A stretch of 43,802 bases of DNA, from the NCBI GenBank assembly GCA_018821305.1, contig JAHJMN010000020.1, positions 1-43,802 on the forward strand. Reading direction: 5' to 3'. The notes beneath the pieces are model-generated. The model had not been told where the DNA came from. It made no database searches and saw only the letters and a list, made by a program, of their open reading frames with translations. Below are positions 2,833-34,978 of this stretch, one piece after another (the stretch's first letter is position 1; each line of letters opens with the position of its first letter). The position numbers were made by a program, and so were the translations under genes. Origin of the DNA: Myxococcota bacterium (GTDB taxonomy: Bacteria > Myxococcota_A > Polyangia > HGW-17).

Positions 2833-3978
2833 TCATAGAACAGGCTGCTTTATTGGAGTTGGCCTGAGGACTTCCATATCGAAGTTTCCTATACCGAGAT
2901 TTCCATCATTGTTGTGCCCCCAGCAGTACGCACTTCCGTCCTTTTTCAGGGCGCATGTGTGAATCTTACCGGCGGAAATTTTCACAGCATTATCTAAATC
3001 TAATTCAACAGGGACATCGGCATAAACTTTAGTTCCATTACCAATTTGCCCGTAATTATTCAGACCCCAGCATGCAACTTTCCCGCTTTTTCTCAGCGCA
3101 CAATTATGATTATACCCCGACGAAATCGCCTCAACCGATTCAAGAATCTTTACAACATCTTTTGAGCCGTTTCCTTTTTTCCCCAATTTGCCCCAGCAAA
3201 AGACACTACCGGCAACTGTCAATGCGCACGTGTGGTTCTCACCGGCAGAAACTTGCTTCACATTCTCGTTAATTCCTTGAACCATTGTAATATTTTTTGG
3301 TCTTTCAGATGGTGATACCCCAACCTGTCCATAATCATTCTTGCCAAAACACTTTACTTCCCCATCCCGATTTACAATGCATGTATGATTGGCACCGCAG
3401 GCAATCTTTTCAGCATTTAAATTCTCGACTTTTTGTGGCACTTTGCTGAACGGAACATCACTTCCGAGGCCTGTTTGCATGAAATCGTTTCGACCCCAGC
3501 ACCACACACTTCCATCATTTTTCAAAGCACAACTGTGATTTGCTCCGGTGCAGATTGACTTATAAGAAGGCTTGCTCCCTTTGACAAGCACAGGTATTTT
3601 GCTTTCAACATCAGAATCATTGCCAAGTTGCCCCTCTTTATTATAGCCCCAGCACCACACTGTACCTTTGGCTTCAATGGCACAAGTAAATGGATAGCCT
3701 GCAGATAACTGCTTGAATTTTGCATTCTTAATTTTAACCTGCACGGGGAAACTCTGGTTATGCACATCACCTGTTCCAAGACGCCCGTTATTTCCAGCCC
3801 CCCAACAATACGCGCTTCCGTCATTGGACAGCGCGCAAGTGTGATAAGCCCCGGACGATATCTGATGATATTTCAATTTGCACGATTTCCCACACCTGTT
3901 TGAATTTGACCCGGTTGTCTCCCGACAGCCAAAACTAGAAAATAATATAATAATGGTAACAATTAATGCGTTTTTCAT
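2833..3978 (-). CDS. RCC1-repeat (seven-blade propeller) lipoprotein
   Basis: A 381-residue exported lipoprotein (MKNALIVTIIILFSSFGC, Cys18) followed by seven RCC1-type repeats covering almost the whole mature protein. Each repeat carries a version of H-T-C-A-L...G-S-x-x-C-W-G, for example HTCALSNDGSAYCWG, FTCAIEAKGTVWCWG and HSCALKNDGSVWCWG. Seven repeats match the seven blades of an RCC1 beta-propeller. Each blade contributes two cysteines, which could form disulphides in the periplasm or outside the cell. GGGAG lies 6-7 nt upstream of the ATG. Such proteins are frequent in Myxococcota and Bradymonadales; binding partners are unknown. Protein-protein or polysaccharide binding at the surface is a guess. 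Confidence 0.9.
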   Translation of the reverse strand: MKNALIVTIIILFSSFGCRETTGSNSNRCGKSCKLKYHQISSGAYHTCALSNDGSAYCWGAGNNGRLGTGDVHNQSFPVQVKIKNAKFKQLSAGYPFTCAIEAKGTVWCWGYNKEGQLGNDSDVESKIPVLVKGSKPSYKSICTGANHSCALKNDGSVWCWGRNDFMQTGLGSDVPFSKVPQKVENLNAEKIACGANHTCIVNRDGEVKCFGKNDYGQVGVSPSERPKNITMVQGINENVKQVSAGENHTCALTVAGSVFCWGKLGKKGNGSKDVVKILESVEAISSGYNHNCALRKSGKVACWGLNNYGQIGNGTKVYADVPVELDLDNAVKISAGKIHTCALKKDGSAYCWGHNNDGNLGIGNFDMEVLRPTPIKQPVL

Positions 3979-4121
3979 ATATCTCCCTCAAGTCCACACT
4001 AACCTATCACAACTAAACCAAGTTTTCACCAATATACCAATTCCATCACCCTTCACGAAAACCGGAAACCTCCGCGTTTGGATTTACGGGTGTGATCATT
4101 TACGTCGATGTGATTACCAAA

Positions 4122-4398
4122 CGCCGGAATTTCCGCGTTCGCAAGAACGCCTTCATCCATTTCGTCAACCTTGATATGGAAACCGCAAACCCGTGTTCGC
4201 TAGAACACCTTCATCCGTTTCGTCAACCCTGATTACCCAATCGCCGGATTTTCCGCGTTCGCAAGAACGCCTTCATCCATTTCGTCAACCCTTGATATGG
4301 AAACCGCAAATCCGCGTTCGCTAGAACGCCTTCAACCGTTTCGTCAACCCTGATTACCCAATCGCCGGATTTTCCGCGTTCGCAAGAACGCCTTTAAC
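4122..4398. repeat. 120-bp tandem repeat array of GNRA-type hairpins
   Basis: Units start with CGCCGG at 4122, 4242 and 4363, giving a period of 120-121 bp and 2.3 copies. Each unit holds two related halves, each with a hairpin: GCGTTC-GCAA-GAACGC and GCGTTC-GCTA-GAACGC. One hairpin at 4193-4208 reads GTGTTC-GCTA-GAACAC, a paired change that keeps the stem. No credible gene lies in 3979-4638. Bases 3979-4121 hold the RCC1 gene leader and one copy of the GTGATCATTTACGTC module; 4497-4638 shows nothing beyond the leader of the next gene. Confidence 0.85.
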
Positions 4399-4401
4399 TA
4401 G

Positions 4402-4421
4402 CCCGGAGCTTCAGCTCCGGG
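4402..4421. repeat. short hairpin CCCGGAGCT/AGCTCCGGG
   Basis: A perfect 9-bp inverted repeat with a 2-nt loop (TC). The identical hairpin recurs at 7810-7829, in both cases directly before a long GCGCCGCC palindrome, so the two form one composite module. Confidence 0.85.
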
Positions 4422-4441
4422 TAGGCGTGCGTGCGCCCGCC

Positions 4442-4496
4442 TCCCTTTTTCGCTCATATGCGCCGCCGGCGGCGGCGCATATGAGCGAAAAAGGGA
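4442..4496. repeat. 26-bp perfect palindrome, CATATG type
   Basis: Arms 4442-4467 and 4471-4496 are exact reverse complements, with a 3-nt loop (GGC). The arm contains TCATATGCGCCGCC. A sister copy with a 25-bp stem lies at 7849-7903. Two further long palindromes share the GCGCCGCC core but have GTTGCGCCGCC arms (17557-17609 and 28749-28801). Confidence 0.95.
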
Positions 4497-4638
4497 CCTG
4501 GCTCAAACCTGTTCATTAATATTTACGACTAAATTCAATAAATGCGGCCTGAACGAGAGCTAAAATCAAATTTTACTAGTGTCAGGATTGGAAATTTAGT
4601 AAATTTAATCAGTTGGCAGTGAGGCTGGAGGATTCTTA

Positions 4639-7112: not shown

Positions 7113-7560
7113 GATCCGCGGATTCAACATCGCGTTGGGATTCAGGGGTGTGGTCATTCACGTCTATGTGATTACCCCGGCGCCGATCCCAGAGCTGAAG
7201 CACTGGGCTAATTAAAGGCGGTCTGCGAACGCTTGTCGCTTCATTTCCCGCACTTCGATTCCCGTTTGCGTTATCCCATGTTGTTTACAATATGATCCGC
7301 GGATTCAACATCGCGTTGGGATTCAGGGGTGTGGTCATTCACGTCTATGTGATTACCCCGGCGCCGATCCCAGAGCTGAAGCACTGGGCTATTATAGGCG
7401 GTCTGCGAACGCTTGTCGCTTCATTTCCCGCACTTCGATTTCCGTTTGCGTTATCCCATGTTGTTTACAACATGATCCGCGGATTCAACATCGAATGGGG
7501 ATTCACGGGTCGAGGTCATTTACGCCTATGTGATTACCCCAACGCCGTCCCGGCTCTTAC
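7113..7560. repeat. 180-bp tandem repeat array of hairpin modules
   Basis: GATCCGCGGATTCAACATCG starts at 7113, 7294 and 7474, a period of 180-181 bp, with the third copy diverging after about 80 bp. Each unit holds a GATTCAGGGGTGTGGTC...GTGATTACCCC module and a hairpin formed by CCCAGAG and CACTGGG. The flanks hold GCCTGTGGGCACAGGC (7094-7109), GAGCCACAACGTGGCTC and a GATGCC/GGCATC-like hairpin. Open frames here are by-products of the repeats: they have no ribosome-binding site, and related sequences elsewhere are out of frame. Confidence 0.8.
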
Positions 7561-7809
7561 GAACCGGGCTGATAAACTTTCGCCTGTGCAAGCACAGGCT
7601 CATGATCAGATTCCAAACACCGGAAAAGAGCCACAACGTGGCTCACACACATTAGCGAAGGGATCAAAGATGCCAGAGGCATCGAAGATCCCTGGAACCC
7701 ACACCCCCCAACCCCGGGACACTGAAGGTGTCCCACAAAAACCGCAAATCCACACCACCACACAATCCAAACATCGGAAAACCGCGTTCGCAAGAACGCC
7801 TTTGGATAG

Positions 7810-7903
7810 CCCGGAGCTTCAGCTCCGGGTCCGCGTACGCCCCCCGCACCCTTTTTCCCTCATATGCGCCGCCGTGGCGGCGGCGCATATGAGGGAAAAA
7901 GGG
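7810..7903. repeat. short hairpin plus 25-bp palindrome (CATATG type), second copy
   Basis: CCCGGAGCT/AGCTCCGGG at 7810-7829 is followed by arms 7849-7873 and 7879-7903, exact reverse complements around a GTGGC loop. This is the same composite as 4402-4496; the spacer and the loop differ, while both arms stay complementary to each other. Confidence 0.9.
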
Positions 7904-33305: not shown

Positions 33306-34859
33306 ATGTTTGATAAAGCTAAAAGTTGGCCTTTTTCCGAGGCTCAGAGTCTTCTGAAATCCCATGGCCCCTTTAACGAAACAGTCCTGTTTGAAACGGG
33401 TTTCGGCCCCAGTGGCCTGCCTCATATCGGGACCTTCGCGGAAGTTGCCCGTACAACATGGGTACGCAAGGCGTTTGAAAAGCTTACGGGGCAGAAAACC
33501 GAGCTCGTAGCTTTCTCTGATGACATGGACGGTCTGCGCAAGGTTCCCCTGAATCTTCCCAACCGTGAAATGCTTGCGGAAAATCTTGGAAAACCTCTTT
33601 CATCCATTCCGGACCCCTATGGTTGCTGCTCGAGTTTTTCCGCACATATGAACAACAAACTATGCGAATTTCTTGATGCATTCAAGTTTGAATACCGTTT
33701 TCAGAGTTCATCCGCAGCCTACAAAGCTGGTCACTTTGATGAAAATCTTCTGAAGATACTTACAAACCATGAAGAGATTCGTCAGGTTATCGTTCCTACT
33801 TTGCGCGAGGAAAACCGAGGTGAGTGGTCGCCCTTCATGCCTGTATGCCCGAACTGCGGCAAGGTTTACACCACAAGAGTCGCAGAAGTTTATCCCGACC
33901 GGGGAACCCTTAAAAGCGTTTGTGACCGCACCTTCGGAGAAGTATCCGGGTGTGGGCATGAAGCAGAAATTCCTGTTACCGGCGGCAATGTAAAAGTCGG
34001 CTGGAAAATCGACTGGGCTCTTCGCTGGGCAAGTTACGGAATCGCCTATGAAATGTACGGCAAAGACCTCATTGAAAGTGCAAAACTCAGTGAAAAAGTC
34101 TGCCGTAAACTTGGGTCCAAGCCACCAGCTGGACTCTTTTATGAGATGTTTCTCGATGAAAATGGTGAAAAAATATCCAAAAGTGTTGGAAAAGGCTTAA
34201 CCGTTGATTCATGGATGGAATATGCTCCCGTTGAAAGTCTGCTTTACTACATCTGGCAAAACCCCAAAAAGGCCAAGCGACTGTTTTTCGGTATGATCCC
34301 GAAGGTCGTTGATGACTACCTCACGGAAATTCAGAAGTTTCATTCCACAGCTCCGGAGCAGGGCATCGACATGGCCGTATGGCACTTGTTTCAGGGTGAT
34401 GTTCCGAAATATGAATCATCAATTACATTCAGTGTTGTAAACAATCTCGTAAGTGCTGTAGGTGGTGACGACAGGAATGTTCTTAAAGAATATCTTCTGA
34501 AATATGATGAAAAGAGCGCGGATTATCCTGAAGTTATTGATTCAATGCTCGATCGCAGCCTTGCTTTCTACCGGGATTTCATAGTCCCAACGAAGAAGTT
34601 TGAAAATCCCCCGGAACATATGATGGACGCATTCCGTGACCTTCACAGTGCCCTTAAAGCCCTTGATCCATCAGCTCCCCTCGACAATGTTCATTCAATT
34701 CCGTTTGATATTGCAAAGAAATACGAAATTGACCCTCCGGAATTCTTCAAAGCCTTCTATCAGGCAGTATTAGGCCAGGATCGCGGCCCCCGCTTCGGCG
34801 CCTTCACAAAACTAATAGGCATAGAAAAACTGAGTCAACTAATCGAAAAAATCATGTGA
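33306..34859 (+). CDS. lysS: class I lysyl-tRNA synthetase
   Basis: A 517-residue synthetase that charges tRNA-Lys. It is of the class I type: SGLPHIGTF (36-44) is the HIGH site and KISKS (289-293) the KMSKS site, and no class II motifs are seen. A Cys cluster (CPNCGKVYTT...CDRTFGEVSGCGHEAE) forms the zinc insert. Class I LysRS is typical of archaea and occurs in some bacteria, such as alphaproteobacteria and spirochaetes; most bacteria use the unrelated class II enzyme. ATG at 33306 has AAAGGA 6 nt upstream. Its stop codon lies within a hairpin that is repeated twice more downstream. Confidence 0.96.
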   Translation: MFDKAKSWPFSEAQSLLKSHGPFNETVLFETGFGPSGLPHIGTFAEVARTTWVRKAFEKLTGQKTELVAFSDDMDGLRKVPLNLPNREMLAENLGKPLSSIPDPYGCCSSFSAHMNNKLCEFLDAFKFEYRFQSSSAAYKAGHFDENLLKILTNHEEIRQVIVPTLREENRGEWSPFMPVCPNCGKVYTTRVAEVYPDRGTLKSVCDRTFGEVSGCGHEAEIPVTGGNVKVGWKIDWALRWASYGIAYEMYGKDLIESAKLSEKVCRKLGSKPPAGLFYEMFLDENGEKISKSVGKGLTVDSWMEYAPVESLLYYIWQNPKKAKRLFFGMIPKVVDDYLTEIQKFHSTAPEQGIDMAVWHLFQGDVPKYESSITFSVVNNLVSAVGGDDRNVLKEYLLKYDEKSADYPEVIDSMLDRSLAFYRDFIVPTKKFENPPEHMMDAFRDLHSALKALDPSAPLDNVHSIPFDIAKKYEIDPPEFFKAFYQAVLGQDRGPRFGAFTKLIGIEKLSQLIEKIM

Positions 34860-34978
34860 TTTTTTCGATATAACGAAGTCTGGACAACGAAGTTGAACAG
34901 ACAAAAAAAAATCATGTGATTTTTTCGATATAACGAAGTCGGAAAACAAAGTTTTACGACATTAAAAAATCATGTGAT
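34846..34978. terminator. triplicated A/T-stem hairpins over and after the lysS stop
   Basis: AAAAAATCATGTGAT occurs at 34846-34860, 34906-34920 and 34964-34978. The first two continue into TTTTTCGATATAACGAAGTC, an exact 35-bp repeat with a 60-bp period. AAAAAATCA and TGATTTTTT form a 9-bp stem with a TG loop and a T run, as in a terminator. The first copy contains the lysS stop TGA. Confidence 0.7.

What the first reader, a model, noticed from the sequence alone, without database searches (positions are those of the whole stretch)
4122..4398. Compensatory change in GNRA-type hairpins of a 120-bp tandem array
Hairpins GCGTTC-GCAA-GAACGC and GCGTTC-GCTA-GAACGC repeat along the array, and one copy is GTGTTC-GCTA-GAACAC, changing both strands of the stem together. 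This favours selection for (or a mechanism preserving) the folded form, in RNA or single-stranded DNA.
Basis: seen in the sequence. Interest (0 to 1): 0.5.

Follow-up and report, generated by a model that had tools for sequence, protein, structure and literature searches.

The report
Transposase-end hairpins, kept as DNA
The hairpin array is made of copies of the DNA ends of a small bacterial single-strand transposase, and the same kind of unit seems to be listed elsewhere as a small RNA, so the paired changes are more likely traces of a mobile DNA element than of an RNA.

Summary
In detail: five hairpins at 4135-4391, one with both stem strands changed (4194, 4207). One paired change in a five-hairpin array is weak alone (about 0.01 by my arithmetic), and in this genome broken H2 stems outnumber re-paired ones (14 against 2 of 70). 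The hairpin is the outer one (H2) of a scattered unit, H2 - linker - TAG - H1 - long palindrome P. The unit flanks two Y1 (HUH) transposase genes in inverted orientation. P pairs at 97% of cells although its letters differ widely between copies. In 80 named relatives of the transposase, flanking hairpins favour C(GNA)G or C(GNNA)G loops on one predicted strand (52 loci against 7, 21 ties). This fits single-stranded DNA loops and not RNA GNRA loops. Rfam's 'sRNA' Acido-Lenti-1 (RF01687) matches the unit below threshold in the window and, above threshold, flanks 6 of those 80 genes. Best reading: DNA ends of a TnpA-Y1 'subclass 1.2' element, a group for which the 2018 survey lists no REP. Transposition itself is not shown.

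The parts
4073..4134 (+). Flanking dispersed repeat (...GGTGTGATCATTTACGTCGATGTGATTACCAAACGCCGGAATTTCC) that precedes H2 in many copies
   Evidence: (most of 87 genome matches lie at query 14-94)
4135..4150 (+). H2 hairpin, GCGTTC-GCAA-GAACGC
4193..4208 (+). H2 hairpin with paired change, GTGTTC-GCTA-GAACAC (changed bases 4194 and 4207)
4255..4270 (+). H2 hairpin, GCGTTC-GCAA-GAACGC
4314..4329 (+). H2 hairpin, GCGTTC-GCTA-GAACGC
4376..4391 (+). H2 hairpin of the complete terminal unit, GCGTTC-GCAA-GAACGC
4392..4401 (+). Linker ending in TAG at the foot of H1 (position of the GTAG guide in REPs; resemblance only)
4402..4421 (+). H1 hairpin, CCCGGAGC-TTCA-GCTCCGGG
4377..4421 (-). Sub-threshold full-length match to Rfam RF01687 Acido-Lenti-1 (28.6 bits, cut-off 37, E 1.6e-4)
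4442..4496 (.). P, perfect 27-bp-arm palindrome (arms 4442-4468 and 4470-4496)
   Evidence: covariation
7784..7829 (+). Second complete H2-TAG-H1 unit of the window, with its own P downstream

Best explanation
The array is built from the end sequence of a small single-strand-DNA transposable element. The element encodes a Y1 (HUH) transposase with the Y---Q--HH signature (TnpA-Y1 'subclass 1.2'). Each end is a unit of hairpins: H2 - linker - TAG - H1 - palindrome P, in opposite orientation on the two sides of the gene. Inferred mechanism: when the strand is exposed, for instance on the lagging strand, H2 and H1 fold in single-stranded DNA and the transposase recognises that fold. It can act in trans on solitary units, which spreads them as REP-like repeats; the window array is such a solitary unit whose outer hairpin was then duplicated in tandem. 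Stem letters can drift provided both arms change together, because transposition-competent copies must fold and/or because hairpin-templated repair copies one arm onto the other. Shown: the anatomy, the inverted flanking of transposase genes, the dispersal, the covariation, the strand-specific C(G..A)G loops across species, and the match to Acido-Lenti-1. Inferred: recognition, cleavage, movement, and which of the two forces keeps the arms paired.
For: Two of the three Y1_Tnp genes of this genome (C84, C8) have the unit on both sides in inverted orientation. Their proteins pass the IS200/IS605 model (78.6 and 81.1 bits, cut-off 55), and P0001 matches ISHp608 transposase by sequence (E 1.2e-8); DH.H, WQ and Y...Q..HH are invariant in 8 aligned relatives. 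One copy, with both ends, sits inside a CRISPR array, which points to mobility. The congener G001 lacks both the transposase, at the cut-offs used, and the unit (1 of 20 genomes has it). In 76 named relatives with both flanks, upstream matches the reverse complement of downstream (score >=50) in 34, against 3 of 380 cross-locus pairs and 0 of 64 far flanks. C(G..A)G hairpins: 170 of 432 on the predicted strand, 43 on the other, about 1 each in shuffled flanks; by locus 52 against 7 with 21 ties, far flanks 3 and 3 of 131 hairpins. DNA loops GNA and GNNA with any N are described as extraordinarily stable (PMC4686876, passage). RF01687 above cut-off flanks 6 of 80 transposase genes: 12 matches, all within about 410 bp. 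RF01687 and TnpA co-occur in 6 of 9 RF01687-positive genomes against 29 of 280 others (Fisher 1.3e-4; 5 of 8, 7e-4, without the own genome).
Against: Movement, cleavage and binding are not shown. H2 alone in this genome has more broken than re-paired stems, and further pair types in H2+H1 do not exceed shuffles (8 against 9.7). 42 of 76 named loci score below 50 in the inverted-flank test, and upstream against downstream in direct orientation also reaches 50 in 21 of 76, perhaps because flanks hold self-palindromic arrays. Only 32 of 80 loci have the loop type on both sides, and 28 of 80 do not favour the predicted strand. RF01687 reaches its cut-off at 6 of 80 loci and nowhere in this genome (0 of 126 weak matches; at that loose limit 4 of 14 control genomes also ring). 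Two of the 12 matches (L191) have the other orientation. 3 of 9 RF01687-positive genomes have no TnpA at the cut-off used. The DNA energy model sees almost no strand difference (-4.7 and -4.7, -5.7 and -5.3 kcal/mol). P was picked by its palindromicity (55 of 72), which biases its score upward. The genome counts are not independent by descent.
Confidence: 0.78

Rival explanations
1. It is a structured RNA (a member of Acido-Lenti-1, classed in Rfam as an sRNA gene, or an mRNA-stabilising or attenuating hairpin), and the paired change reflects selection on the RNA fold.
For: Full-length match to RF01687. The 2010 paper's table rates the motif 'probably' RNA (table row seen). RNA folding energies are strong on both strands (-24.6 and -23.1 kcal/mol, z -5.35 and -3.26). 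In the RNA direction some copies form C(UUCG)G loops.
Against: The unit flanks a transposase gene in inverted orientation, so the 'RNA' strand mostly points away from the gene on both sides (10 of 12 matches). Loops obey G..A on the opposite strand, with GNRA in only 13 of 78 tetraloops, and UUC loops (GAA on the rule strand) are a minority, 20 of 170. Own units show no strand preference relative to neighbouring open frames (8 same, 14 opposite among the 22 of 74 in tandem contexts; crude calls). Promoter-like and terminator-like matches around the array are no more than in shuffles and none lies in it.
Confidence: 0.12
2. The paired letters are kept not by selection but by hairpin-templated mutation: during replication or repair one arm of a near-palindrome is copied onto the other, so a single event changes both arms.
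For: P varies widely in sequence yet stays 97% paired, which suits a copying process. The changed window copy is one of two B units in a tandem array and lacks its own H1 and TAG, so selection for transposition on that copy is doubtful. The mechanism is known from E. coli and phage work (recalled, no call).
Against: A copying process alone does not explain the fixed strand of C(G..A)G loops, nor the 14 H2 copies that stay unpaired.
Confidence: 0.4
3. The paired change in the window is two coincidental transitions.
For: 14 of 70 H2 copies carry unpaired changes.
Against: Other paired changes exist in H2: TCGTCC/GGACGA in two anchored units and a further perfect copy in the same L094 array. H1 and P covary. 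CpG is not depleted.
Confidence: 0.15

Closest known systems
REP / RAYT (REPtron, BIME) systems of TnpA-REP class 2
   Same: Y1 HUH transposase gene flanked by inverted hairpins, with many solitary copies elsewhere in the genome; stems vary by complementary changes (PMC3733652, sections on GTAG families and on tyrosine transposases; PMC2817692, abstract; PMC6006769, section 12 and first part of section 15)
   Different: Two conserved hairpins per unit plus P; ATAG, TTAG or CTAG rather than GT[AG]G in this genome; the transposase has Y---Q--HH rather than Y---NP and fails the REP-transposase model (23-25 bits against 80)
TnpA-Y1 subclass 1.2 (Quentin et al. 2018, PMC6006769)
   Same: DH[IV]H, WQ, Y---Q--HH; the 80 relatives kept are mostly Bacteroidota, with Planctomycetota, Acidobacteriota and others (titles)
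   Different: That survey lists 'no' REP for this subclass and says it is generally without IS200-type terminal structures; here inverted hairpin ends are found. It names Cyanobacteria as a main host group; I saw none among the 80 titles
Acido-Lenti-1 RNA (Rfam RF01687)
   Same: H1 - CTA - linker - short H2 on the opposite strand, full 46-position match
   Different: In this genome below the family cut-off; here the unit is a transposase-end repeat, whereas Rfam classes it as an sRNA gene
IS200/IS605 elements (IS608, ISDra2)
   Same: Y1 transposase of that family; subterminal hairpins recognised on one strand (PMC6006769 passages, PMC8266576 sections 3 and 27)
   Different: Ends are inverted copies of a two-hairpin unit; I saw no tnpB-like open frame in the ~2 kb read around the C84 and C8 copies, but ran no search for one

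Membership tests
REP/RAYT (class 2 TnpA-REP) | Y1 transposase gene flanked by inverted hairpin repeats | tested here: met
   (C84, C8); 34 of 76 named relatives
REP/RAYT (class 2 TnpA-REP) | many dispersed solitary copies of the repeat | tested here: met
   79 H1 places, at least 46 H2-H1 matches (40 of 59 candidates scored)
REP/RAYT (class 2 TnpA-REP) | GT[AG]G at the 5' foot of the hairpin | tested here: not met
   58 distinct own units: TTAG 30, ATAG 26, CTAG 1, ATTG 1. GTAG does occur in some relatives (L191; many Bacteroidota flanks)
REP/RAYT (class 2 TnpA-REP) | Y---NP motif / NCBIfam NF047646 | tested here: not met
   Y---Q--HH; 23-25 bits against cut-off 80
TnpA-Y1 subclass 1.2 | DH[IV]H, WQ and Y---Q--HH motifs | tested here: met
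   definition from PMC6006769 Table 1
TnpA-Y1 subclass 1.2 | subclass-specific C-terminal domain and placement in the subclass tree | not tested
   the authors' profiles are not at hand
TnpA-Y1 subclass 1.2 | no REP or terminal structures | tested here: not met
   this is the point that differs from the survey
IS200/IS605 family (protein) | NCBIfam NF033573 above cut-off | tested here: met
   78.6, 81.1, 63.8 bits against 55
IS200/IS605 family (element) | strand-specific excision and insertion via ssDNA | not testable with these tools
   needs biochemistry
Acido-Lenti-1 (RF01687) | score above the gathering cut-off of 37 bits | tested here: not met
   window 28.6; 0 of 126 matches in the own genome. 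Met by 12 matches at other TnpA loci
Acido-Lenti-1 (RF01687) | two hairpins with CTA after the first | tested here: met
   full-length match 1-46, consensus and alignments
Acido-Lenti-1 (RF01687) | is an expressed RNA | not testable with these tools
   no expression data; strand context shows no preference
GNRA tetraloop hairpin (RNA) | third loop base a purine | tested here: not met
   19 of 70 own loops are GNRA; 13 of 78 tetraloops in relatives; of 39 loci with a tetraloop 37 have GNYA and 8 GNRA

The most novel reading that the evidence does not exclude
Acido-Lenti-1 is not an RNA family. It is the single-stranded-DNA recognition unit of a widespread group of Y1 transposases (subclass 1.2) that was thought to have no REPs. 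In this group the hairpin is selected as DNA, through C(GNA)G/C(GNNA)G mini-hairpin loops on one strand, and comparative-genomics RNA screens mistook its covariation for RNA structure.
Probability: 0.62. Interest if true: 0.72.

Novelty: new variant of a known kind. Interest (0 to 1): 0.6.

Why it matters
If right, it gives a subclass of HUH transposases its missing DNA partner, with a simple loop rule that can be tested by a cleavage assay. It also takes a named 'small RNA' off the list of candidate RNAs and warns that compensatory changes alone cannot tell RNA hairpins from DNA hairpins. A 2026 paper (PMC13298647, passage) still suggests a regulatory role for Acido-Lenti-1 copies next to protease genes; under this reading those copies would be mobile repeats.

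Tried and rejected
RNA families at curated cut-offs: no match in the window; no tRNA or tmRNA. The permissive Rfam scan gave two further, chance-like matches (veev_FSE, E 0.2; sot2652, E 0.36). Intrinsic terminator or promoter at the array: none beyond shuffles. CpG hypermutability: CpG observed/expected 0.97. Exact unit pattern outside this genome: 0 of 58 other relatives, 0 stretches in genome contigs and 0 in viral contigs; the last two tools may leave out the own genome. DNA or RNA folding energy as a strand test: differences too small to decide. Neighbour-gene orientation: crude open-frame calls, no preference. A covariance model R1 was built but not used for a search. Literature: no paper linking Acido-Lenti-1 or subclass 1.2 with transposase hairpin ends was found by searches, in a library that lacks most subscription papers and all preprints; only the outlines, passages and sections named in the report were read.

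Rows dropped or limits before counts: 4 of 74 H1-anchored units had no H2 (interrupted) and were left out of the H2 tallies. The anchoring used a fixed list of H1 loop letters, so other H1 types are missed. 4 of 80 named loci had under 200 nt on one side. 17 of 72 units had no palindrome scoring 10 or more. Units identical around H1 were merged and identical rows merged again for the pair counts (58 of 70). Genome searches scored only part of the candidates (40 of 83; 40 of 59; 150 of 611; 20 per genome with stricter filters), so these counts are lower bounds and absences are at those limits.

Full report
Observation. The array at 4111-4394 has a 121-bp period and 2.4 copies and holds five hairpins of one type, here called H2, at 4135, 4193, 4255, 4314 and 4376. 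The copy at 4193 is GTGTTC-GCTA-GAACAC; its counterpart one period on, at 4314, is GCGTTC-GCTA-GAACGC. The two units differ by six substitutions and two one-base indels, and two of the six are the paired change. By my arithmetic such a pair has a chance of about 0.01, so alone it is suggestive and no more.

What it belongs to. The hairpin is not private to the array. With up to three mismatches the 16-mer has 84 matches in the 5.22-Mb genome against 54 for the reversed control, and 22 are exact; the window is contig 216. The last H2 of the array (4376-4391) continues into a linker ending in TAG (4392-4401), a second hairpin H1 (4402-4421), a spacer, and a perfect palindrome P with 27-bp arms (4442-4496). 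The same H2-TAG-H1 order, often with P, recurs through the genome: 79 places match an H1 pattern against 6 for its reversed control, and a looser regular expression on the fetched stretches gives 74 distinct anchored units. At least 46 matches to the H2-H1 stretch lie in this genome and none in 19 other relatives, including a 95%-complete congener.

Transposase. Of the three Y1_Tnp genes in the genome, two (C84, C8; 85% identical) carry this unit on both sides in inverted orientation. Both proteins pass the IS200/IS605 model (78.6 and 81.1 bits, cut-off 55) and miss the REP-transposase model (23 bits, cut-off 80). Their DHIH, WQ and Y---Q--HH motifs are those that Quentin et al. 2018 give for TnpA-Y1 subclass 1.2, for which their Table 1 says 'no' REP (PMC6006769: sections 12 and 31, first part of section 15, and passages). 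The C8 copy, with both ends, lies inside a CRISPR array with spacers of 34-38 nt, which suggests that the whole element moves. The third gene (C131) is 34% identical and has one P-H1-H2 unit in the stretch fetched (L094), about 2 kb upstream.

Covariation. I tested each hairpin. P: 41 distinct copies by 20 pairs, 97.3% Watson-Crick (best of 300 shuffles 61.7%), 233 both-side-changed cells of 820 (best shuffle 69); P was chosen by its palindromicity (55 of 72 units), which inflates this, though by eye it lies at a similar distance from H1 in most units. H2 plus H1 on 58 distinct units: covariation score 0.153 against 0.082 in shuffles (0 of 500) and at most 0.076 when slid; 50 both-side-changed cells against 16.8; 91.7% of cells paired against 87.6%; pairs with a both-side change 5 against 3.2 (10 of 500 shuffles reach it). 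The number of further pair types, 8, is below the shuffled mean of 9.7. H2 alone is weaker: 54 of 70 intact copies unchanged, 14 with changes that break a pair (9 of them the GACCGC form), 2 with paired changes (TCGTCC/GGACGA).

RNA or DNA. On the strand that reads H2-TAG-H1, 65 of 70 H2 loops begin with G and end with A: GTA, GCAA, GCA, GCCA, GTAA, GTCA, GAA. Only 19 of 70 are GNRA. DNA mini-hairpins with GNA or GNNA loops, any N, are described as extraordinarily stable (PMC4686876, passage). In the flanks of 80 named relatives of the transposase (the best 80 of 573), 170 of 432 hairpins have C(G..A)G loops on the predicted strand (gene strand upstream, opposite strand downstream), 43 on the other strand, and about 1 each in shuffled flanks; 13 of 78 such tetraloops are GNRA. 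By locus, 52 favour the predicted strand, 7 the other and 21 neither (p = 1.4e-9), while flanks 1.2-1.5 kb away give 3 and 3 of 131 hairpins. The folding programs see little strand difference, so this argument rests on the loop rule and not on computed energies.

Generality. In 76 of those 80 loci with both flanks, the upstream flank matches the reverse complement of the downstream flank with a score of at least 50 in 34, against 3 of 380 cross-locus pairs and 0 of 64 far flanks. Direct-orientation matches also occur in 21 of 76, perhaps because many flanks hold arrays of palindromes. The architecture H2 - linker - TAG - H1 recurs with different letters, for example in Planctomycetota (L183, L189, L209) and Acidobacteriota (L200, L202). 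Many Bacteroidota loci instead show a short hairpin followed by GGTAGAAA without a clear H1 (read by eye). Looser relatives in the own class also show flanking hairpins of other sequences (read by eye).

Acido-Lenti-1. A permissive Rfam scan of 4000-4600 gave RF01687, Acido-Lenti-1 'sRNA', on the minus strand at 4377-4421, all 46 model positions, 28.6 bits (cut-off 37), E 1.6e-4. The own genome has 126 matches at E <= 1, none above the cut-off; at that limit 4 of 14 control genomes also have matches, none above the cut-off. In 398,689 bases around the 80 transposases, 12 matches above the cut-off lie in 6 loci, all within about 410 bp of the gene; the five downstream are on the plus strand, and five of seven upstream are on the minus strand, with two exceptions in L191. 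In 289 genomes of the class, 9 have RF01687 at E <= 1e-4 (0 of 14 control genomes) and 35 have the transposase at E <= 1e-12; 6 of the 9 have both (Fisher p 1.3e-4; 5 of 8 and 7e-4 without the own genome; relatedness not corrected). In one of them (G027, contig 192) an above-cut-off match at 605-651 follows the gene at 104-547. Weinberg et al. 2010 list the motif as probably RNA, probably not cis-regulatory, in Acidobacteria and Lentisphaerae (PMC2864571, table row). None of the papers of the held library that name it links it to a transposase in the passages I saw; PMC7682815 was seen in a listing only.

Mechanism. I think most likely that TnpA recognises folded single-stranded H2-TAG-H1, as TnpA-REP and IS608 TnpA recognise theirs in a strand-specific way (PMC8266576, sections 3 and 27), and moves its own element or solitary units in trans. 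TAG at the foot of H1 sits where REPs have their GTAG guide; that is a resemblance, not a test, and the own units read TTAG, ATAG or CTAG. The window array is then a solitary unit whose outer hairpin has been multiplied in tandem. Whether pairing is kept by selection on folding or by hairpin-templated repair I cannot decide; for the changed window copy, which lacks its own H1, the second is at least as likely.

Limits. No binding, cleavage, excision or transcript was shown. Target sites were not determined. Many counts are lower bounds because the searches score a limited number of candidates.

Noticed in passing
L092 (G000:C8:13000-15060): A transposase element with both ends sits inside a CRISPR array (repeat GCTTCAATGGAGCCGCTTCTTTTCAGAAGCGGAAAT, spacers 34-38 nt). 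The repeat before it lacks its last 3 nt, and a block of right end + 36 nt + repeat is duplicated.
   Followed up: partly
window 17984, 18323 (minus); L094 3620-3690: A second repeat type, GGGATC...GATGCC-GGAA-GGCATC...GATCCC followed by another hairpin, obeys the same C(G..A)G loop rule in the window; a similar repeat lies about 0.7 kb 3' of the C131 transposase.
   Followed up: partly
L096 1102, 1931, 2396; L099; L100: A third hairpin type, CGGCTC-GTGA-GAGCCG, in the same mosaic repeats, with the same loop rule.
   Followed up: no
L094 480-630: Another small H2 array with a different stem (TCGTCC-GCAA-GGACGA twice, a third copy with one unpaired position).
   Followed up: partly
window 7188-7224, 7369-7402: Units without P and with an H2 stem broken at one pair (GACCGC subfamily), in a 181-bp tandem array at 7113-7551.
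   Followed up: partly
window 34846-34978: A tandem array with a ~60-bp period, not examined.
   Followed up: no
window 2833-3978 (minus): Protein of RCC1 repeats next to the array.
   Followed up: no
L040, L091 ~285-420, L094 ~1165, ~3550 and ~3780-3855: Recurrent TAGTTCGTGTCC and TAGTTACTGTCCTG...CAGGACAGTAACTA sequences, also beginning with TAG, seen at several sites (by eye).
   Followed up: no
L182-L261, Bacteroidota loci: Short repeats of the type GTCCC-GTA-GGGAC GNAATATTGGTAGAAA flank many of these transposases; no H1 is obvious there (by eye).
   Followed up: partly
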